The notes under the pieces: generated by a model
Seen by the model: only the letters and a program-made list of their open reading frames with translations
Told to the model about the DNA's origin: nothing
The model's database searches: none
Shown: positions 1,830-26,588 of the stretch, one piece after another
Position numbering within the stretch: the stretch's first letter is position 1
Layout of the letters: each line of letters begins with the position of its first letter
Source: a virus
Length of the DNA: 64,000 bases
Virus record (IMG/VR): IMGVR_UViG_3300035698_013362
Location: 1-64,000 of that record
Strand: one strand, 5' to 3'
Position numbers and translations under genes: made by a program

Positions 1830-2743
1830 TGAATATCTTATTCCATGTAGGTAGTGGGAATACAGATCGGCCTTCACGTTGGTGGGGTGTATGCGTACAC
1901 TTCTCTAACTTGGCCAGATCATTCGAATCTTTAGGACATGAATGTGTTCTACAAGTTCATCCAAAAGCTGTTTCAGCTAATATATTCCACAGATTTGAAT
2001 TATCTGAGGTTGCTAAAGATTCTCAATGTAATCCTGATGTAGTCTTTACATGGAATGGTATCTCTCCGGGTGATAAAGCTATTATTGATTTGCATCCTAA
2101 TGCTATTCCAGTCTATGCTGAATTAGGTTTCTTTGATCATTATGAAACGGTCTACTTTGATTTCTCTGGAACCAATAGTCGTTCAATGAATCTTCTCGAG
2201 GACATTGATAAAGAATTTAATGGCCTTGATGAAGAAATATTCAATAGAGTTAAACGTAAATACGCTAAGTATCAACTTATTAATGATTATGAATATGTCT
2301 TTGTTCCTCTTCAGGATAATCTCGATACTCAGATCACTAAATATAGTCCGTTTAACAATATGACTGAATTTATGGATTGGGTTCTTGATGTAACAAAGTT
2401 CATGGGACCTGAAGTAAAGATTGTTTATAAGCAACACCCAATGGCTCCTACTCCAATTAAAGCAGACCCTAGATTAATAGAAGTCAAAGATGATGTACAC
2501 CATTATCTTGAGAATGCAAACTTTGTTATTGGTTGCAACTCAAGTGTGCTCTTCGAGTGTCTATTATATCATAATCGCATTATTACAGCCGGCATAGGAT
2601 TAACTTCTAGGCCTCTGAATGAAGAAGATAGAAAAGCTTATATTATCCATTGTTATAAAAAGCAAATACATCAAACAAAGTTAGGCGATCCTAACTACAT
2701 TAAAGAAACTTGGATGTATAAGGAACTTCTTAAGAAGGTTTAG
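1829..2743 (+). CDS. capsule-synthesis-type glycosyltransferase-like protein
   Basis: 304 aa, GTG start overlapping the previous TAG by 1 nt. The C-terminal half follows the pattern of KpsS/LipB-type capsular polysaccharide proteins (Capsule_synth family): VFVPLQDNLDTQI near residue 155, KQHP near 205, then NFVIGCNSSVLFECLLY near 235-250, the usual sugar-nucleotide-binding region of this GT-B-like fold. A role in making a sugar polymer or transferring a sugar is likely; acceptor and donor are unknown. It lies downstream of an acyltransferase. Its 3' end overlaps a convergent homing endonuclease gene by 14 nt. Confidence 0.6.
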   Translation: MNILFHVGSGNTDRPSRWWGVCVHFSNLARSFESLGHECVLQVHPKAVSANIFHRFELSEVAKDSQCNPDVVFTWNGISPGDKAIIDLHPNAIPVYAELGFFDHYETVYFDFSGTNSRSMNLLEDIDKEFNGLDEEIFNRVKRKYAKYQLINDYEYVFVPLQDNLDTQITKYSPFNNMTEFMDWVLDVTKFMGPEVKIVYKQHPMAPTPIKADPRLIEVKDDVHHYLENANFVIGCNSSVLFECLLYHNRIITAGIGLTSRPLNEEDRKAYIIHCYKKQIHQTKLGDPNYIKETWMYKELLKKV

Positions 2744-3398
2744 ATTTACAATTATTTAAATGATAACGAGTCATATTACACTGTCTTCCAATTTTAAAAC
2801 AATGAGGACAAACCACTTTATAAGATAAGTTATTCTTTCTTTTAATTAAGCTTCGGTTAATTGGATTTCCTAAAAATAATGCAAGTGGTTTATGTTTACA
2901 ATTATCAAAGTGGTATTTTTTAAGATTTGATATATCTATTTCTAATAGACAATGTGGACATTTCTTTATTTCACGTTTATTAGTATGATTAAATTTTCTA
3001 CCTTTAGATACCGCGATTAAATCCCCTGATGTATATCTAGGATCGGTATTTGATACTTGGAATAAATTATTATCTTTATCCCTAACATAAACCATACCTA
3101 ATAAATATCCATCACCACCTATGGCTAAATTATATGTATCAGATCTTTCTATATATTCTTCATTTACAATGTGCATTTCATCGATATATGCTTCATTTTC
3201 AGAATGATGAAATCTTAATATTTCTATAGCAAAATTTTCTATACCATATTTCTTAACGGCTTTATTTATAGCCACACCACTTCCATAATAACCATCATTA
3301 AGATCATTAGTTGAGTGTTTATCTGTATATTCTTTCTTATTAATTAAATTATATGTTCTATAAATTATATGAAATTTACCATCTATTCCTTTAAACAT
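2730..3398 (-). CDS. GIY-YIG homing endonuclease with one DPRY repeat and two zinc fingers
   Basis: 222 aa, free-standing homing endonuclease. Residues about 9-95 are the GIY-YIG domain (FHIIYRTYNLINKKEYTDKHS), followed by one ~31-residue RDKDNN...VSNTDPRYTSGDL repeat. The C-terminus holds two CPHC-x(n)-H-x4-C fingers (about 145-168 and 196-219), likely for DNA binding. The glycine of the YIG motif is Asp here, which may impair activity. The gene is more AT-rich than its neighbours and convergent with the preceding gene. The start has AAAGG upstream and a late-type GATAAATA at 3425. It is intact, unlike most of its paralogues in the window. Confidence 0.85.
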   Translation of the reverse strand: MFKGIDGKFHIIYRTYNLINKKEYTDKHSTNDLNDGYYGSGVAINKAVKKYGIENFAIEILRFHHSENEAYIDEMHIVNEEYIERSDTYNLAIGGDGYLLGMVYVRDKDNNLFQVSNTDPRYTSGDLIAVSKGRKFNHTNKREIKKCPHCLLEIDISNLKKYHFDNCKHKPLALFLGNPINRSLIKRKNNLSYKVVCPHCFKIGRQCNMTRYHLNNCKSKPS

Positions 3399-4823: not shown

Positions 4824-5639
4824 ATGGCCCAAGTATTATTTACCCAGAACTGCTTCTGTCCTGATGATAACCAATTCAACAGACTTAAGCGGTCTCTGTA
4901 TTCCCTTCAAAACTATGCTCGTCACTGTACCCCTAAGAATGTGTATCGATTTGTTCTTAGTGGGTGGGTACATGAAGATTATGAACAAGAACTCGAAACA
5001 TTCATGGAAGAGTGGGCTGATAATAATTTATTCTTCCAACAAGGTATTCATCTAGAATTAAATGAAACGAATGTAGGCAAAGGTAAAGTATGCAATAGCA
5101 TTATACCTAGATATTCTCATTCAGGATGGGATTATGTCTTTATGTTCGATAATGATATTATATTTAAAGAATGTCCTGAAGACATAGTTGATATTCTTAT
5201 CAAGCAGCAAAATGAAATGGATGCTATAGGGCCTTTAAAATATCCAGTTATAAGTTGCAACTTCGAGGAGCACCAGGTTCACAACCTAGGAGCAATGGAC
5301 CAAGGACATACAACTACAGATGGTAGACTCGTTAAATGCAGCACAGGACGATTTGGGTGTGTAGGTGGAGGATGCTGGTTAGTTAGGAGAGATCATTGGG
5401 ACGAGGTCGGAGGATACTGTGATGATACGATTTATGGCAAAGATGATGGTAAGTTTTATCTCGATACTATTATGTTGGGTAAGATGGTAGCACTTTCTAT
5501 GGAGGTATGGGTCATTCATCCTTCAGATGATGATCAAGCGTATAACCTCTTTAAAGCTGACACGAATGTGAATAGAGTCCGCAATATGAATTATGAAGAA
5601 CTTACTGTCGATAGTAATAACTTTTGGAAAAGTAGATGA
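4824..5639 (+). CDS. GT-A-type glycosyltransferase
   Basis: 271 aa, soluble. Residues about 5-120 look like a GT-A Rossmann-like fold, with the metal-binding DxD-type motif in YVFMFDNDIIF near residue 110 and a GGGCWLVRRDHWDEVGGY segment near 190, as in family 2 enzymes that close over the acceptor. Likely role: transfer of a sugar from a nucleotide sugar. An AAGGAAATAA ribosome-binding site precedes the ATG. It could glycosylate modified DNA bases or a surface glycan; the sequence does not decide. Confidence 0.7.
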   Translation: MAQVLFTQNCFCPDDNQFNRLKRSLYSLQNYARHCTPKNVYRFVLSGWVHEDYEQELETFMEEWADNNLFFQQGIHLELNETNVGKGKVCNSIIPRYSHSGWDYVFMFDNDIIFKECPEDIVDILIKQQNEMDAIGPLKYPVISCNFEEHQVHNLGAMDQGHTTTDGRLVKCSTGRFGCVGGGCWLVRRDHWDEVGGYCDDTIYGKDDGKFYLDTIMLGKMVALSMEVWVIHPSDDDQAYNLFKADTNVNRVRNMNYEELTVDSNNFWKSR

Positions 5640-10227: not shown

Positions 10228-10363
10228 ATGCATCCAATATTCGTAGTTATGATCTTGGATCTTAATATTTATGGCACCTGATATCGAAGTTAGATATGAT
10301 AATGGCTACCATTTGAAATTGAATGGATGGATTAACAACCTCACTAAATTATTCAAACGGTAG
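10228..10363 (+). other. two very short overlapping frames, possibly one frameshifted small gene
   Basis: ATG 10228 has a good ribosome-binding site (AAAGGAAAATAAT) but stops after 17 codons. In the next frame ATG 10271 gives 30 residues (MAPDIEVRYDNGYHLKLNGW...) ending at 10363. These may be two tiny genes or one gene with a single-base indel. The 3' end overlaps the convergent acetyltransferase gene by 11 nt. Confidence 0.35.
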
Positions 10364-11988: not shown

Positions 11989-12022
11989 ATCTTCTATATT
12001 ATACTATTAAATAAAGGAACTT

Positions 12023-12727
12023 ATGAACCAAACAATTGTAACAGCAGAAAATTTTGATAGCATCTATCGACATCTATTAAACAAGATCAGACATAGCCCA
12101 GACTACATTGTGGAATCACGCGGTGGAAGGATGTATGAACTTGAAAATGTAATGTTTGTTCTTACTGATCCATATGAAAACCTGGTTGACTCTGAAGCAC
12201 GTGCTTTCAATCTGGATTTTGCTGAAAAGTTCTATGACTGGATTATGGCTGGCAAAAGTGATCCATCTGAGCTATTTGGTGTTAACCCTAATGCTAAGAA
12301 CTTCGCTGAAAATTCAGGTCGTAATACAGCTTATGGCCCTCGTATCCTGAAGCAATTCGATAAGGTTCTTGAAGAACTATCTACTAACGAAGGTACACGT
12401 CGTGCCACAATTTCTATTCTAGAGCCTGATGATATCGAACTCCTCGGTACAGACACTAAGATGGAATTCCCTTGTACAGAATCAGTAAGCTTTAAGATTC
12501 GCAATGGATATCTTGACATGACGGTCAAAATGCGTTCAAATTGTGGAGTAAAGACTGTATGCTATGATACATATAACTTCACTAATCTATTTGCTGAAGT
12601 ATATAGTAGATTATGTGATGAGTACAAAATGAATCTTGAAATCGGTGAATATTGCGTACAAGCGACGTCGTATCATTTCTTCGATAAAGATATTGAACTT
12701 GTTGATGCAATCCTAGCTGAAGATTAA
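12023..12727 (+). CDS. thymidylate synthase-fold pyrimidine hydroxymethylase, probably dCMP-specific
   Basis: 234 aa of the thymidylate synthase / dCMP hydroxymethylase family. RR at 126-127 would bind phosphate, PC at 150-151 carries the nucleophilic Cys, and KMRSN (169-173) matches NMRSN of T4 gp42. Aligned by eye, Asp182 falls at the place of T4 gp42 Asp179, the residue that selects dCMP; thymidylate synthases have Asn there. This suggests 5-hydroxymethyl-dCMP and hence modified DNA. It is shorter than both T4 gp42 and standard ThyA. AAAGGAAC precedes the ATG. A dUMP enzyme remains possible. Confidence 0.65.
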   Translation: MNQTIVTAENFDSIYRHLLNKIRHSPDYIVESRGGRMYELENVMFVLTDPYENLVDSEARAFNLDFAEKFYDWIMAGKSDPSELFGVNPNAKNFAENSGRNTAYGPRILKQFDKVLEELSTNEGTRRATISILEPDDIELLGTDTKMEFPCTESVSFKIRNGYLDMTVKMRSNCGVKTVCYDTYNFTNLFAEVYSRLCDEYKMNLEIGEYCVQATSYHFFDKDIELVDAILAED

Positions 12728-15952: not shown

Positions 15953-17305
15953 ATGAAAAACGAAAACCACATCTCTAATTTCTTTGGTAACGATTATATC
16001 TCATTTGCCTCTTATGATGGCGTAAGGAAAATTGCTTCAGTCGCTGATGGCAACAAACCTACTGCCCGTAAAGCGATATACACAGTTATTGATCTTAAAA
16101 TTAATGCTCCTAAGAAAGTTGACTCGATCAAGTCTAAGGTAGCCGATCATACTGAATATATCCATGGCCAAGATGCGATTGAAGGTGTAATTGTTAACCT
16201 TGCTCAAAACTTCGTCGGTGCTCAAAACGTTCCATTGATGATTAGAGATGGGTCTTTCGGAACTCGGCTTATCCCAGATGCTGCTGCTTCACGTTATATC
16301 AGAAGTGCAGCAGAACCTTATCTGAAGTATTTGTTCAGAGAAGAAGATAACCCAGTTATCGGAAATCAGGAGTTTGAAGGATCAAAAATTGAACCAAAGT
16401 TCTTTGTTCCTATCATGCCTATGCTCCTAGTGAACGGATCTGAAGGGATTGCAGTTGGTTATGCACAAAAGATTCTCCCTCGTGATCCTGAAAAGCTTAT
16501 GCAGTACTTATTTACTGGAATGAAGGATGAAGATCTTTTACTTCCACACTATAATGGATTTAAAGGTAAGATAATTAAGACTGATGTAAAGTCTTTTGAA
16601 ATACGTGGGGTCATTGCTAATAAGAATACGACTACCTACGAAATCCTTGAGGTGCCCGTTGGTTATACCTACACCTCTTATAAGAAGGTATTAGATAAGC
16701 TTGAAGAAGCTGGAACGATTGTTTCATATGACGATAGATGTGATATGGATAAGGATGTGTTCAGCATATCTATTAAGGTTAAACGTGAACAACATAACAG
16801 ATTAAAGGCTATGACTAACCTTGAGTTGTTAGAGACGTTTAAGCTTGTTAAGCGTGTAACTGAAAACTACACTTGCCTTAATGAAAACAACCAGATTGAA
16901 GTATTCGATACAGCTGCTGATATCATCAGACGATATGCAGAGATTCGTGTTAGATATTATACGATGCGTAAAGAATACACTGAAGCACAAATGTTGAAGA
17001 AGATGACGGAACTTAAATCAAAAATTCTGTTCATTGATAAAGTACGTAAAGCGGAAATCGATGTAAAGAGTGAAACTAAAGTCAACCTTATCTTAATCCT
17101 CGATGCAATTGATGGTGTAGTTCTCAAGAATGAGTCCTATGATTACTTATTGAACATGCCACTTTGGTCAATCAATGAAGAATCGTTTGCTAAAGCAATT
17201 AATGAAGTAAAGAAGATGGCCCAAGATTATAAGAATTACCAGAGCATTAAAATTGCCACAATGTGGAAAAACGAGTATCGAGATTTACTTAAAAAATTAC
17301 ATTAA
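15953..17305 (+). CDS. 52: DNA topoisomerase II medium subunit (gp52)
   Basis: 450 aa, matching T4 gp52 in size. This is the GyrA/ParC-like breakage-reunion subunit: winged-helix region with GSFGTRLIPDAAASRYI, where the Tyr near residue 114 is the expected DNA-linking residue, then the tower and coiled-coil parts (LLETFKLV..., EAQMLKKMTELKSKI) and the helix ending before the stop. It acts with the gp39-like subunit encoded 3 kb upstream. No clear ribosome-binding site precedes the ATG. The 3' end overlaps a convergent endonuclease frame by 17 nt. Confidence 0.92.
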   Translation: MKNENHISNFFGNDYISFASYDGVRKIASVADGNKPTARKAIYTVIDLKINAPKKVDSIKSKVADHTEYIHGQDAIEGVIVNLAQNFVGAQNVPLMIRDGSFGTRLIPDAAASRYIRSAAEPYLKYLFREEDNPVIGNQEFEGSKIEPKFFVPIMPMLLVNGSEGIAVGYAQKILPRDPEKLMQYLFTGMKDEDLLLPHYNGFKGKIIKTDVKSFEIRGVIANKNTTTYEILEVPVGYTYTSYKKVLDKLEEAGTIVSYDDRCDMDKDVFSISIKVKREQHNRLKAMTNLELLETFKLVKRVTENYTCLNENNQIEVFDTAADIIRRYAEIRVRYYTMRKEYTEAQMLKKMTELKSKILFIDKVRKAEIDVKSETKVNLILILDAIDGVVLKNESYDYLLNMPLWSINEESFAKAINEVKKMAQDYKNYQSIKIATMWKNEYRDLLKKLH

Positions 17306-18024
17306 GCTTACAATTATCAAAATGCCAACGTTTCATTGCTCCTATATTTCCTTCTTTTTTACAATGAGGACATTTAATATTATTTGATGGGTTCTTTTGT
17401 TTTTTAATATTCTTTTGTTTTTTGTTTTTCTTTATTCTTCCAGAACATATGAATTTAAGTTCTCCATTTAAGTATTTATAATCATATTTAGAAACCCTTG
17501 ATGTATTCCCTTCTTTATCTTTAACAGTAACCATACCTTTAGAGGTAGAAACTAATTCACCTGAAATATATCTAGGATCATTTTTATCTACTTGAAATGT
17601 ATTACCATCTTTATCTTTAACTGGGACCTTATCTTTAAAAAAAGAAACTAATTCACCACTTAGGTATTTAGGATCATCTACAGAAACTGACATAGTATTT
17701 CCATCTTTATCTTTAACTGTTAATTTATTACGCCTATTACAATGGTGCCAAGTTCCAAAACCACCTAAAGTTAAATTATAAGTATCACTACGTTCGACAT
17801 ATTCATAATTAACTATCCTAGATTCCTCCATTAAAGCCTCTTCTTCAGTATTATGAAAACTCAAAATTTCTACTGCAAAATTTTCTAATCCATATTTTTT
17901 TTACCGCTAAATTTAAAACTTTACCAGATCCATAATACCCATCTTCAATATTAGTTGTACTATGCTTGCCTATATACTCTTTATAATTAATTAAATTATG
18001 AGTTCTATAAACTATATGATACAT
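17289..18024 (-). pseudogene. GIY-YIG homing endonuclease with a frameshift at an A8 run
   Basis: ATG 18024 starts MYHIVYRTHNLINYKEYIGKH (complete GIY-YIG), and the frame breaks after LAVKK at an A8 run (17895-17902, T on the plus strand). Removing one A restores YGLENFAVEILSFHNTEEEALMEE and the rest to 17289. The repaired protein has three ~31-residue repeats (DPKYLSGEL, DPRYISGEL, YDYKYLNGEL) and one CPHC...HFDNC finger. AAAGGAC is the ribosome-binding site. It sits between gene 52 and a glycosyltransferase gene. Confidence 0.75.
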
Positions 18025-18040
18025 TTTAATGTCCTTTCTA

Positions 18041-18048
18041 TATTTATA
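18041..18048 (-). promoter_or_regulatory. candidate late promoter TATAAATA
   Basis: Octamer 16 nt before ATG 18024, with AAAGGAC between, driving the endonuclease pseudogene on the minus strand. Confidence 0.4.
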
Positions 18049-18081
18049 TTTCATATATTTCATATATAAATATAAAGAGGC

Positions 18082-18972
18082 ATGCAAATTATGCAAGAAG
18101 TTAAAATAACTCGAGATTTTCCGAATCATATGTTTACAGTAATCAATGATCAGGTAAAAATACAGTCAAATCCGTATATCTTAATTCTTATTCCTTCAAA
18201 GGACCGAAATGACCTTTTGTTTAATTGTATTGATTCGCTTATTACTCATACATCGAAGAAGCTTACAAATATAAATGTTTGTATTATCGATACCGGAAGT
18301 ACTCAAGAAACGATAGACGAAATAAATGAATATCGCAAGGCTAATGAAGACCGATTCATTATAAGCCTTGAAGAACATGGATACTACAACTTTGCCAAGA
18401 ATAATAATCAAGCCTTCGATCACCAGAAAGGTAAGAAGTATGATTATGTTCTATTCTGCAACAATGACGTTCAACTATTAAATGATGCAGTCAGTCATAT
18501 GTTATGGACCTATGAAAACCAGAAGGATGTAGGTACAGTAGGCATCAGATTACATTTTGAAGATGGTAAAGTTCAGCATGCAGGAGCATTTTGTCATATG
18601 ACTAATGGCTTAGCGGGACCAGGGCACTATGGCTTCAGTAAAGTCATCACTGGATCTGTTTTAACTGATATTCAGGACGTTCCTGCTAACACTGCTGCAT
18701 TCTTAATGATGAAAGCACCAGTATTTGAATCTATTAAATTCTCTGAAGAGTATATCGAATGCTTTGAAGACGTTCAATTGAATATTGAAGTAGGTATGAA
18801 AGGACATGTTAATTATTGCAATATGAATGCTGTAGCTTTCCACTTCGAATCACAGTCAAGAAATGCTGATGCACAAAAAGATGCAAAACAAGCACAAGAT
18901 TTAAAAAAGCTATCTACATTTATTTTAAGAAACCAAGCAAATCCATTCATTAAACAAAAGGTATTAACATGA
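18082..18972 (+). CDS. family 2 (GT-A) glycosyltransferase
   Basis: 296 aa. The N-terminal nucleotide-sugar fold is clear: YILILIPSKDRNDLLFNCIDSL (first strand and helix), VCIIDTGSTQETI, then YVLFCNNDVQLL near residue 125 as the metal-binding DxD-type motif. An ED in the acceptor region (YIECFEDVQLNIEVGMKG, near 228) is the usual catalytic base position. ATG 18091, three codons in, has better spacing from GAGG and may be the true start. It could glycosylate hydroxymethylated bases or a surface polymer. Confidence 0.75.
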   Translation: MQIMQEVKITRDFPNHMFTVINDQVKIQSNPYILILIPSKDRNDLLFNCIDSLITHTSKKLTNINVCIIDTGSTQETIDEINEYRKANEDRFIISLEEHGYYNFAKNNNQAFDHQKGKKYDYVLFCNNDVQLLNDAVSHMLWTYENQKDVGTVGIRLHFEDGKVQHAGAFCHMTNGLAGPGHYGFSKVITGSVLTDIQDVPANTAAFLMMKAPVFESIKFSEEYIECFEDVQLNIEVGMKGHVNYCNMNAVAFHFESQSRNADAQKDAKQAQDLKKLSTFILRNQANPFIKQKVLT

Positions 18973-19308: not shown

Positions 19309-20376
19309 ATGACTGATCAAGCTCGCCAGATTGAAACACAACTCGTTTATTGGAACGACGAATACCGCAAAGGTACTCCAGTCGTAAGTGATCCTGTTTT
19401 CGATTCACTCCTCGAACAATTTGAATCATTCGTTACTGTTGAAGAATACACCCGTGTTCGTGAATCCCTTTTTAATACTAAAGGTGACGTGAAACACCAA
19501 TACATCATTGGTTCGTTGAAGAAAACGAAAGCTGAAGATGATTCAATCCTCAAATGGATTGGTAAAGATAACGTAACTGAAGCATACATCGTTGAAAAGC
19601 TTGATGGAATGTCTATCGTGTTACATTACGTAGACAGCGTTCTCGTTAAAGCCGTGTCACGTGGTGATGGTGAATATGGTAAGGACTATACAGAAAACCT
19701 CAAGCATATCGCTCCACTTCGCCTTGACCTCAAATTCACAGGTCAGGTTCGTGCTGAAGTTGTGCTTCCAATTAGTGAACTTAAAAACATTAATGATATA
19801 GGCTTCACCTATAAGAACCCACGTAATGCTACGACTGGTCTCATTACTTCCAAATCAACCGAGGCGGATCTCCTTAAGCGCTGTAAAGTTATTGCTTACC
19901 AGATAATGGGATCAACTGAAAAGAAACCTACACAATACAGTGCGTTATATGATCTCGGTTTTACTCTTCCTAAACGTGAAACCTTCGATACACGCATTGA
20001 TAATGTTACACCTAATTCACTTAAAGCTATTTACGAAATCTGGACAGCTCAATCTGATTACGAAATCGATGGACTTGTTATCCACAACCTGAATTATGGT
20101 GATGAAAACATTAAACTCCCGACCCACACAATCGCTTTTAAAGTAAATGATCTCGTTGCAACAACAACCGTTCTCGACATCGAATGGGAAATGAGTCGTG
20201 GTAAAGAATATCGCCCAGTGGTTGTATTTAAAGCAATCGAGCTTGGTGGAGCTACAATCCAACGTGCTACTGGAAACAATCTACAATGGCTTATTGATCA
20301 TAAACTTGAAATTGGATGTAGTGTTATTATAGAAAAAGCGGGTGATATTATTCCTCGGATTGTACAAGTTGTTTAG
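19309..20376 (+). CDS. NAD+-dependent DNA ligase, N-terminal part (LigA subunit A)
   Basis: 355 aa covering the adenylation domain and the OB fold. VEKLDGMS near residue 94 is the KxDG nucleophile motif, followed by VSRGDGEYGKDYT, RAEVVLP (motif III) and DYEIDGLVI (motif IV); it ends after the OB-fold segment VIIEKAGDIIPRIVQV. Bacterial LigA continues into a zinc finger, HhH and BRCT, which here are a separate gene 108 bp downstream. The N-terminal Ia domain is short but begins with the expected Tyr/His region. It seals nicks during replication and uses NAD+, unlike the ATP ligase of T4. Confidence 0.9.
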   Translation: MTDQARQIETQLVYWNDEYRKGTPVVSDPVFDSLLEQFESFVTVEEYTRVRESLFNTKGDVKHQYIIGSLKKTKAEDDSILKWIGKDNVTEAYIVEKLDGMSIVLHYVDSVLVKAVSRGDGEYGKDYTENLKHIAPLRLDLKFTGQVRAEVVLPISELKNINDIGFTYKNPRNATTGLITSKSTEADLLKRCKVIAYQIMGSTEKKPTQYSALYDLGFTLPKRETFDTRIDNVTPNSLKAIYEIWTAQSDYEIDGLVIHNLNYGDENIKLPTHTIAFKVNDLVATTTVLDIEWEMSRGKEYRPVVVFKAIELGGATIQRATGNNLQWLIDHKLEIGCSVIIEKAGDIIPRIVQVV

Positions 20377-20484: not shown

Positions 20485-21306
20485 ATGTTTACTAAACTAA
20501 ATTTAAATATCCCAATGTTTTGTTTTCATTGTAATCAACCAACTACAATGAAAGGTCCACACCTCGTATGTGCTAATGATGCTTGTACTGGAAACCAAAT
20601 CAAGCAAATGAATACATTCCTTCGTGCTTGTGGAATTCAAGGTTTCTCTGAATCAACTTTGGAAAAATGGAAGCTTACTTCGATCGAAAAGGTAATGGCC
20701 TTCTACCCTAACACTCCTAATGAAAAGAAATTTCTTAATGAGCTATATGGTAATGTCTTCAACAAATCGAAACGTGATTTGATTATTGCTCTGCCATTCC
20801 ATAACTTCGGTTCAACCCTTGTGACCCGTATGCTTGATACATATGGTAAGCAACGTATGGCTCATAACGATATCCTCGTAGATGGAATCAGTGCTGAACG
20901 TCAACGCAACTTCAAATCTCAGTTCGCTGAACTTGTGAAATGGGTTGAAGTTATTACTCATGACAATCGTTGGAAGCCCCAGGTCGCCGTTAGACAAAAC
21001 ACTTCACCTCTCAGCAATAAACTATCAGGCCTCAGCTTTTGCTTTACAGGAAAGCTTACTACAATGACTCGTTCTGATGCTGAGAAATATGTTAAGTCTA
21101 ATGGTGGTGAAGTCAAATCGGTTTCAGCTAAGCTTACTTATCTTGTTACTAACAATCCTAACAGTGGTACCTCCAAGAACAAAAAAGCTCAGAACCTTGG
21201 TGTACAACTCATTACTGAAAAACAGTTTGGTGAATTACTCGGTAAGAAGATTGAAGATAAAAAGACTGAAGATAAATCAACACTTTTCGACATCAACGAT
21301 CTATAA
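20485..21306 (+). CDS. NAD+-dependent DNA ligase, C-terminal part (LigA subunit B)
   Basis: 273 aa carrying the domains absent from the preceding gene: a Cys4-type zinc finger (CFHCNQ...CANDACTGN, about residues 12-37), a helix-hairpin-helix region, and a BRCT domain (LSGLSFCFTGKLTTMTRSDA, about 172-245). It should bind DNA and dock to the adenylation subunit. Two-gene NAD+ ligases annotated as subunits A and B are known in some large myoviruses. The stop, gap, promoter and ribosome-binding site all argue for two true genes, not a frameshift. Confidence 0.85.
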   Translation: MFTKLNLNIPMFCFHCNQPTTMKGPHLVCANDACTGNQIKQMNTFLRACGIQGFSESTLEKWKLTSIEKVMAFYPNTPNEKKFLNELYGNVFNKSKRDLIIALPFHNFGSTLVTRMLDTYGKQRMAHNDILVDGISAERQRNFKSQFAELVKWVEVITHDNRWKPQVAVRQNTSPLSNKLSGLSFCFTGKLTTMTRSDAEKYVKSNGGEVKSVSAKLTYLVTNNPNSGTSKNKKAQNLGVQLITEKQFGELLGKKIEDKKTEDKSTLFDINDL

Positions 21307-25170: not shown

Positions 25171-25491
25171 TTAATCTTCGTCAGGATCTTTAGCATTCAT
25201 TTCCATATCTTCAACATATTTTGAAGACAGCATATTCTGCATAGTTGTCATGAAATGCTCTCGAATAGAATCAACAAATTTACCATGTTGAAGTAATCCA
25301 CCAAGTCCCATAACAACTTCTTCCTGTGGAGTAAGTGTATGTTTACCTTTAAGAGTACAAATGGTTTCACATTTACCATTACCTCTTAATACGAGAGCGA
25401 CATCATCACGAGCCAATTCAATTGTTTGCTTCACTTCTTTTGAAACGATATCGTCTTCTTTATTTTGTTTCTTCTTTAAAAAATTCTTCAT
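25171..25491 (-). CDS. hypothetical protein, 106 aa
   Basis: Charged protein with basic N-terminus (MKNFLKKKQNK) and acidic C-terminus (AKDPDED). The middle has a helical GLGGLLQHGKFVDSI region. It overlaps the upstream glycosyltransferase gene by 4 nt, so it is translationally coupled to it. Function unknown. Confidence 0.55.
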   Translation of the reverse strand: MKNFLKKKQNKEDDIVSKEVKQTIELARDDVALVLRGNGKCETICTLKGKHTLTPQEEVVMGLGGLLQHGKFVDSIREHFMTTMQNMLSSKYVEDMEMNAKDPDED

Positions 25492-26588
25492 TTAATCAAC
25501 CTATCAAATACATCTGTATGGTAATGGAGATTGTTTTCCAACCACCAGCCTTTATTTCGATCTTCAGTATTACCTGATTCCATTATAGCGTTATTTTTAT
25601 TTATCTCAGCATTTAAGCTTTTGTCATCCTTAAATATTCTATCAATTTGATTCTGTAGAGCGTTAGCATCACTGAATACTGAATTGGTATGTTTATTGTA
25701 AGTGCAAATGTCCTGTCCAAGGAAAGGAATACGAGAAGCAGCTGCCTCTAATAATTTGATATTTGATTTAGCTTGATTGAACTTACTATCTTCAAGTGGA
25801 GCAATAACCAAATCTAATTCTTTAGACTTAAGGCAATTCAAGTAGTTAAGGAATGGTGATCCAGAAGTAGTAGATATCTTACCTTGTTCAAGCAAATGCC
25901 ATAGACGTTTAGGAACATGAGCGAAGAACACCCACTCATATTTGTCACATGTCGCTTCAATAAAATCAATGATATGAGAGAAGTCATCCTGCGTTGTAGC
26001 ATTTGCTGAATGATTGAAATGTGAAAATGAGCATGGGAACCCGATGCGTAGGCGACGATTCTTTGGCACCTGCTTCGTCACAGGCGGAGTATAAGACCAC
26101 CATTGTGGTATAAAGTTAGGTACAACTCTAAATTTCTTCAGGTCAATCCCTAGCTTAGTATGGTAATACATACCTAATTCTACCGTAGAAACAGTAACAG
26201 CATCAGCATGTTTAAACATACATTGGATATTAGGTCCTGTCTTGGCGTGTTCTGGAGTGCTAGGGTTGTGAGGAGGCATATCTTCACCGATTAGAATATC
26301 ATCTATATCGTATATGACTTTCACTCCCTTGCGCGCCTGTAGCTCACTTAGGTAAGCTTGAAAGTATTTAGTGTGGTTTTCACTATGGAACCGCTGAGCC
26401 TTGAAGATACAATTCTCATTTACACTTCCACTTAATGATGTAGATGGACCATCAAATCTTATAGATGAATAAAACATTTCCTTCTGAGCTCTTAAAGCCA
26501 TATCAGGAAATGCCATTCGATAATAACCACAAGCAAAGTGGTCCATCTGCATATTAATTACAATAGCTGTCTTTTTAGGTTTGTTCAT
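25488..26588 (-). CDS. GT-B-type glycosyltransferase (family 1/4-like)
   Basis: 366 aa. VIYDIDDILIGE near residue 92 is a hallmark of GT4-like enzymes, LRIGFPCSF near 188 starts the second Rossmann domain, and LVIAPLEDSKFNQAKSNIK then LLEAAASRIPFLGQ near 265-292 is the nucleotide-sugar-binding loop with its ExxA region. Likely transfers a sugar from a nucleotide sugar. It overlaps gp46 upstream and is far from the other three glycosyltransferase genes. Possible targets are hydroxymethylated DNA or a surface glycan. Confidence 0.75.
   Translation of the reverse strand: MNKPKKTAIVINMQMDHFACGYYRMAFPDMALRAQKEMFYSSIRFDGPSTSLSGSVNENCIFKAQRFHSENHTKYFQAYLSELQARKGVKVIYDIDDILIGEDMPPHNPSTPEHAKTGPNIQCMFKHADAVTVSTVELGMYYHTKLGIDLKKFRVVPNFIPQWWSYTPPVTKQVPKNRRLRIGFPCSFSHFNHSANATTQDDFSHIIDFIEATCDKYEWVFFAHVPKRLWHLLEQGKISTTSGSPFLNYLNCLKSKELDLVIAPLEDSKFNQAKSNIKLLEAAASRIPFLGQDICTYNKHTNSVFSDANALQNQIDRIFKDDKSLNAEINKNNAIMESGNTEDRNKGWWLENNLHYHTDVFDRLIK

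What the first reader, a model, noticed from the sequence alone, without database searches (positions are those of the whole stretch)
12023..12727. dCMP-hydroxymethylase-like enzyme plus several glycosyltransferases suggest hypermodified DNA
Seen: a thymidylate-synthase-fold protein with PC nucleophile at 150-151, KMRSN, and Asp182 at the position of T4 gp42 Asp179 by eye. The window also encodes GT-A enzymes at 4824 and 18082, a GT-B enzyme at 25488, a capsule-type GT at 1829, an LbH acyltransferase at 766 and GNAT at 10353. Known: T4 glucosylates 5-hydroxymethylcytosine after gp42 action. Inference: cytosines may carry a sugar, perhaps acylated, more elaborate than in T4.
Basis: partly seen in the sequence, partly recalled or inferred. 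Interest (0 to 1): 0.62.

Follow-up and report, generated by a model that had tools for sequence, protein, structure and literature searches.

The report
Phage cytosine-hydroxylating enzyme, not a hydroxymethylase
This virus gene encodes a relative of the enzymes that make thymine, but its sequence and predicted shape match a recently described phage enzyme that puts a hydroxyl directly on cytosine (a handle for attaching sugars) rather than the hydroxymethyl group made by phage T4.

Summary
The chemistry is probably different. By sequence, tree and predicted fold it is nearest not to gp42 but to the RB69/LC53/Thanatos clade, whose solved member (PDB 9iqc/9iqu) is titled an FAD-dependent dCMP hydroxylase. 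In 47 aligned proteins, TS, gp42, dUMP-hydroxymethylases and MilA all keep the folate-site Asp169 and Gly173 (11/11); the hydroxylase clade has Asn and Val; this protein has Cys174 and Thr178. I favour a dCMP 5-hydroxylase giving 5-hydroxy-dCMP, so any sugar would sit directly on O5. The protein lacks that clade's insert, so its cofactor is uncertain. Three of four named glycosyltransferases have sequence support (18082, 25488, 1829); 4824 has none. None matches T4 or RB69 DNA glycosyltransferases or is tied to this gene. An acylated sugar is unsupported. The record is an 82.9 kb fragment; beyond the window it has a dUTPase-like gene and a dCMP deaminase, but no dNMP kinase was found. Relatives revealed an undescribed GT-like family beside the gene and a U32/shikimate module hinting at a second, prephenate-dependent route.

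The parts
12023..12727 (+). TS-fold protein, 234 aa; proposed dCMP 5-hydroxylase (5-hydroxy-dCMP synthase)
12014..12018 (+). AAGGA ribosome-binding-like site
   Evidence: read from sequence
12473..12475 (+). Cys151, catalytic nucleophile (TS C146, T4 gp42 C148)
   Evidence: invariant in all 47 aligned proteins
12542..12544 (+). Cys174 at the folate-site Asp position (TS D169, gp42 D171)
   Evidence: D in 11/11 others, N in 35 of 36 clade proteins, C here only
12554..12556 (+). Thr178 at the folate-site Gly position (TS G173, gp42 G175)
   Evidence: G in 11/11 others, V in 34 clade proteins, T here and in L013
12566..12568 (+). Asp182, cytosine-type base contact (TS N177, gp42 D179)
18082..18972 (+). 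GT2 glycosyltransferase, possible but unproven DNA glycosyltransferase (same strand, same replication-gene run)
   Evidence: no link to the TS-like gene shown
25488..26588 (-). phrog_7162 glycosyltransferase beside gp46/gp47 homologues, the position of alpha-GT in T4; possible but unproven DNA glycosyltransferase

Best explanation
The gene encodes a TS-fold dCMP 5-hydroxylase (5-hydroxy-dCMP synthase, AfhB-like). Cys151 attacks C6 of dCMP, which Asp182 holds in cytosine register (a step shared with TS and gp42, inferred here from invariant residues). The activated C5 then takes a hydroxyl from an oxygen donor, probably flavin plus O2 as in the solved relative, instead of a one-carbon unit from methylene-tetrahydrofolate. 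The product, 5-hydroxy-dCMP, would be phosphorylated, built into phage DNA in place of C, and glycosylated after replication directly through O5 (no CH2), protecting the DNA from nucleases. Shown: fold, kinship, catalytic Cys, cytosine-type Asp, loss of two folate-site residues. Inferred: hydroxylation, flavin use, incorporation, glycosylation.
For: Best relatives are LC53, RB69 and Thanatos TS homologues (2e-35 to 6e-30) against gp42 4e-8. Best solved sequences and best fold matches are 9iqu and 9iqc, titled 'phage HY126 dCMP hydroxylase-AfhB' and 'Monooxygenase dependent on riboflavin with dCMP and FAD' (model pLDDT 88). The tree joins it and L013 to that clade (100/99). Folate-site Asp169 and Gly173 are lost as in that clade and kept in 11/11 others; Asp182 is kept. 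Mosigvirus and Thanatos DNA carry sugar bound directly to cytosine, the former through a 5-hydroxy-dCMP synthase of this family (PMC13390438; PMC12838424).
Against: Only about 31% identity to characterised phages; 25 of 36 clade-specific positions and the clade's insert before NTxYGPR are missing. Support falls to 93/87 without TS outgroups, and grouping with gp42 plus L013 is not rejected (p 0.22). No dNMP kinase, U32 gene or known DNA glycosyltransferase in the record, though it is a fragment. FAD binding could not be tested.
Confidence: 0.6

Rival explanations
1. It is a true dCMP hydroxymethylase (gp42-like) using methylene-tetrahydrofolate, and the DNA carries hydroxymethylcytosine.
For: TS fold, Cys151 and Asp182 as in gp42; T4-type phage; like MilA and gp42 it lacks the hydroxylase clade's insert; a gp42 + window + L013 grouping is not rejected (p 0.22).
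Against: Folate-site Asp and Gly are replaced by Cys and Thr, though every aligned hydroxymethylase keeps both. gp42 scores far below the hydroxylase clade by sequence and fold. 53 gp42-specific positions are not shared and 8 are.
Confidence: 0.17
2. It is a member of the hydroxylase lineage with a different oxygen donor: it works with, or is backed up by, a U32-family enzyme that uses prephenate (RlhA/TrhP chemistry), encoded in the missing part of the genome or by the host.
For: The nearest relative L013 has a U32 gene directly after the TS-like gene. U32 flanks the gene in 15 of 41 loci, and chorismate mutase occurs only with U32. L080 pairs U32 with DAHP synthase. RlhA and TrhP need prephenate for 5-hydroxylation of C and U in RNA (PMC6599085). 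The folate/flavin pocket of this protein differs from the solved hydroxylase.
Against: No U32 or chorismate mutase in the record. 17 of 19 further clade records lack U32, so the TS-like protein does not generally need it.
Confidence: 0.13
3. The gene has another role (for example nucleotide-pool control) and the DNA is not hypermodified; the nearby sugar enzymes serve surface glycans or virion parts.
For: No linked glycosyltransferase or dNMP kinase was found.
Against: Cys151, Arg171, Ser172, His218 and Asp182 are all kept; the ORF is intact in a run of co-directional replication genes; the record also has a dUTPase-like gene and a dCMP deaminase.
Confidence: 0.1

Closest known systems
Phage dCMP hydroxylase AfhB / 5-hydroxy-dCMP synthase (PDB 9iqc, 9iqu; RB69 ORF048c, LC53, Thanatos TH1_062)
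   Same: Best match by sequence and fold; Cys nucleophile; Asp at the TS N177 position; folate-site Asp and Gly lost; Phe at the TS Y209 position in most; short C-terminus
   Different: About 31% identity; no KPKSxxLPAN insert; Cys174/Thr178 instead of Asn/Val; gene lies upstream of gp39, not between gp43 and uvsX; no U32, chorismate mutase or ORF003c in the record
T4 gp42 dCMP hydroxymethylase
   Same: TS fold, Cys nucleophile, Asp179 = Asp182; T4-type phage background
   Different: 25% identity over 154 residues; gp42 keeps D171 and G175 and has a longer C-terminus; gp42 lies by gp43 and beta-GT
MilA CMP hydroxymethylase (PDB 5jnh, 5b6d)
   Same: Second-best fold match; 28% identity; no insert; Asp at the TS N177 position
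   Different: Keeps folate-site Asp and Gly; grouping with this protein is rejected (p 0.013)

Membership tests
Phage dCMP 5-hydroxylase (AfhB / 5-hodCMP synthase) clade | TS fold with catalytic Cys and cytosine-type Asp | tested here: met
   C151, D182; model and alignment
Phage dCMP 5-hydroxylase (AfhB / 5-hodCMP synthase) clade | Loss of folate-site Asp169 and Gly173 (my diagnostic, derived here) | tested here: met
   C174 and T178; clade has N and V, 11/11 others D and G
Phage dCMP 5-hydroxylase (AfhB / 5-hodCMP synthase) clade | Branches with the clade rather than with gp42 or MilA | tested here: inconclusive
   100/99 with TS outgroups, 93/87 without; gp42 + window + L013 not rejected
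Phage dCMP 5-hydroxylase (AfhB / 5-hodCMP synthase) clade | KPKSxxLPAN-type insert before NTxYGPR (clade feature, not known to be required) | tested here: not met
   Absent here and in L013
Phage dCMP 5-hydroxylase (AfhB / 5-hodCMP synthase) clade | FAD binding and formation of 5-hydroxy-dCMP | not testable with these tools
   Needs assay or coordinates of 9iqc
dCMP hydroxymethylase (gp42 type) | Cytosine-type Asp at TS N177 | tested here: met
   D182
dCMP hydroxymethylase (gp42 type) | Folate-site Asp and Gly kept | tested here: not met
   Cys174 and Thr178
Thymidylate synthase / dUMP hydroxymethylase | Asn at TS N177 (uracil substrate) | tested here: not met
   D182; Asn in the 4 uracil-type proteins
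T4-type glycosylated-DNA system | DNA glycosyltransferase homologous to T4 alpha/beta-GT or RB69 ORF003c | tested here: not met
   No match in the record; the record is a fragment and its other GTs are unassigned

The most novel reading that the evidence does not exclude
This protein and L013 are a deep branch of TS-fold dCMP hydroxylases with a cofactor pocket of a third type (neither folate nor the insert-bearing flavin type). In the wider group, 5-hydroxycytosine for DNA is made by two interchangeable routes: a TS-fold oxygenase, and an O2-independent U32 enzyme supplied with prephenate through phage-encoded chorismate mutase or DAHP synthase. Both feed lineage-specific glycosyltransferases.
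Probability: 0.2. Interest if true: 0.78.

Novelty: new variant of a known kind. Interest (0 to 1): 0.5.

Why it matters
It would place direct cytosine hydroxylation, recently described for phages such as RB69 and LC53, in a far more distant T4-type phage, through a lineage that branches below the known clade. Such a lineage could show how a folate-dependent hydroxymethylase fold became an oxygenase. It also warns that 'thymidylate synthase' and 'dCMP hydroxymethylase' labels in phages hide two chemistries, which two residues (TS positions 169 and 173) separate cleanly in this set. That matters because type IV restriction and other defences depend on the exact modification.

Tried and rejected
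Close relatives of the window's DNA: bases 1-25000 match none of 50,697 phage records; no relative of the protein was found in GTDB genomes by pattern scan. gp42 orthology: rejected on folate-site residues and similarity. dUMP specificity: rejected on Asp182. Linking the window's GTs to the gene through relatives: 25488 and 4824 have no homologue in 14 related records; GT2 occurs in 6 of them but is a large general family. RB69 ORF003c and the L015-type GT were sought in the record and not found. U32 and chorismate mutase were sought with Pfam and purpose-built profiles and not found. The single-sequence model of 4824 was too poor to use. Profile comparison of the GT families showed no relation. 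Two primary papers on 5-hydroxycytosine are out of reach: Lee et al. (PMC13326640) is not held, and Mahler et al. 2025 did not appear in the searches; I know their content only through papers that cite them.

Full report
Observation. The ORF at 12023-12727 (+) encodes 234 residues with an AAGGA site just upstream of the ATG. It belongs to the thymidylate synthase (TS) superfamily (Pfam; PHROGs).

Setting. The window lies in a viral record of 82,918 bases. Its first 25 kb have no DNA relative in the phage collection, but proteins show a very distant T4-type phage: topoisomerase subunits gp39 and gp52, primase gp61, gp46/47, terminase gp17, tail sheath gp18, UvsW, clamp loader gp44. That comparison found no DNA polymerase, UvsX or major head protein, and the T4-type genomes used here are mostly 155-175 kb, so the record is very probably a fragment and absence of a gene from it proves little. 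Beyond the window it carries a dUTPase-family gene (77177-77701) beside a dCMP deaminase (77701-78174).

What the enzyme is. The protein is most like the TS homologues of LC53 (2e-35), RB69 (4e-33) and Thanatos-2 (6e-30); T4 gp42 scores 4e-8. Among solved structures the best sequence matches are 9iqu and 9iqc at 1e-27, ahead of MilA (1e-13) and gp42 (2e-5). An AlphaFold model built from 26 homologues (mean pLDDT 88) again matches 9iqc and 9iqu best. Depositors title these 'Monooxygenase dependent on riboflavin with dCMP and FAD' and 'phage HY126 dCMP hydroxylase-AfhB'. Mosigvirus DNA carries arabinose linked straight to C5 of cytosine, and its precursor 5-hydroxy-dCMP is attributed to this TS homologue (PMC13390438). 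Thanatos DNA likewise has a pentose bound directly to cytosine (PMC12838424).

Residue test. In 47 aligned proteins I looked at E. coli TS Asp169 and Gly173, which line the folate site (established knowledge of TS). Both are present in all 11 sequences outside the clade (TS, gp42, dUMP hydroxymethylases, MilA and others). In 34 clade members the pair is Asn and Val. In this protein it is Cys174 and Thr178, and in its nearest relative L013 (43% identity) Asn and Thr. Asp182 is kept in all 36. The protein thus has the cytosine-type base contact and the catalytic Cys but has lost the folate contacts, like the hydroxylase clade. It also shares Phe220 (Tyr in 11/11 others) and the short C-terminus.

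Limits. It shares only 11 of 36 clade-specific positions and lacks the clade's insert before NTxYGPR. The tree joins it and L013 to the clade (100/99), but support drops to 93/87 when TS is left out, and a grouping of gp42 with this protein and L013 is not rejected (p 0.22). Grouping with MilA or the vipetofem protein is rejected (p 0.013 and 0.0004). Hydroxylation is therefore an inference, and flavin use more so.

Glycosyltransferases. In the window, 18082 is a GT2 enzyme, 25488 matches a phage glycosyltransferase family and 1829 a capsule-type family; 4824 has no support beyond the eye. None matches T4 alpha/beta-GT or RB69 ORF003c, and 25488 and 4824 have no homologue in 14 related records. 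25488 lies beside gp46/47, where T4 keeps alpha-GT, and 18082 is on the same strand in the same replication-gene run; these two are the best guesses. Nothing supports an acylated sugar.

What relatives show. A family of ~435 aa (alignment A7) has no match in the phage collection and none in Pfam or PHROGs for the members scanned, only weak Glyco_trans_1 signals; it carries a GT-like motif (HGGxTHxEAM; my reading). It lies directly after the TS-like gene in L015, L020, L047, L050 and L054, and after U32 and dCMP deaminase genes in L013. A reverse search with this family found 11 loci; 9 hold the TS-like gene nearby. One exception, L080, has no TS-like gene in its 16.4 kb record but has this family, a kinase-like gene, a U32 gene and a DAHP synthase; the other is a 4.1 kb fragment.

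U32 genes also flank the TS-like gene in 15 of 41 loci, and chorismate mutase occurs only with U32 (11 loci; Fisher 4e-7, not corrected for kinship). Bacterial U32 proteins RlhA and TrhP are needed for prephenate-dependent 5-hydroxycytidine and 5-hydroxyuridine in RNA (PMC6599085). A Glu and several Cys are invariant in the phage proteins and resemble the essential E/C/C of TrhP by eye. A second, prephenate-fed route to 5-hydroxycytosine is a reasonable hypothesis for those phages. I found no paper in the library that states it, but the primary papers are not available here. None of these genes is in the window's record.

Verdict. The hydroxymethyl reading is probably wrong: direct hydroxylation is better supported (0.6 against 0.17). 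The sugar is plausible but unproven.

Noticed in passing
L015:6682-7986, L013:8608-9915, L020:6215-7531, L047:6672-7970, L050:6659-8005, L054:6739-8040, L080:6013-7284: A ~435-aa family with a GT-like motif, absent from the phage collection and without Pfam/PHROG match in the members scanned, sits beside the TS-like gene in most contigs that hold it; candidate glycosyltransferase for 5-hydroxycytosine DNA.
   Followed up: partly
RB69 (L007:26492-27661), LC53 (L005:6485-7995), Thanatos-2 (L006:8172-9562), L013:6724-7794: U32-peptidase family genes, often with a chorismate mutase gene, flank the TS-like gene; bacterial U32 proteins need prephenate to hydroxylate C5 of C and U in RNA. Chorismate mutase occurs only where U32 does.
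   Followed up: partly
L080:4417-9632: A module of epimerase, uracil-DNA-glycosylase-like, GT-like family, kinase-like, U32 and DAHP synthase genes without a TS-like gene in the 16.4 kb record: possible replacement of the TS-like enzyme by a U32/shikimate route.
   Followed up: partly
G000:C1:78540-79355 (-), outside the window: A beta-keto acid cleavage enzyme (BKACE, PF05853, 4.9e-76), unusual in a T4-type phage record.
   Followed up: no
G000:C1:77177-78174 (+), outside the window: A dUTPase-family gene directly beside a dCMP deaminase; the dUTPase-like protein has a homologue next to the TS-like gene of Enterococcus phage vipetofem.
   Followed up: partly
window 19309-20376 and 20485-21306: NAD-dependent DNA ligase-like protein split over two ORFs (matches to full-length ~640-aa proteins in L020, L050, L054).
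   Followed up: no
window 2730-3398, 17289-17864, 17851-18129; G000 75115-76119: Several ORFs resemble T4 Seg homing endonucleases, two of them between gp52 and the GT2 gene.
   Followed up: no
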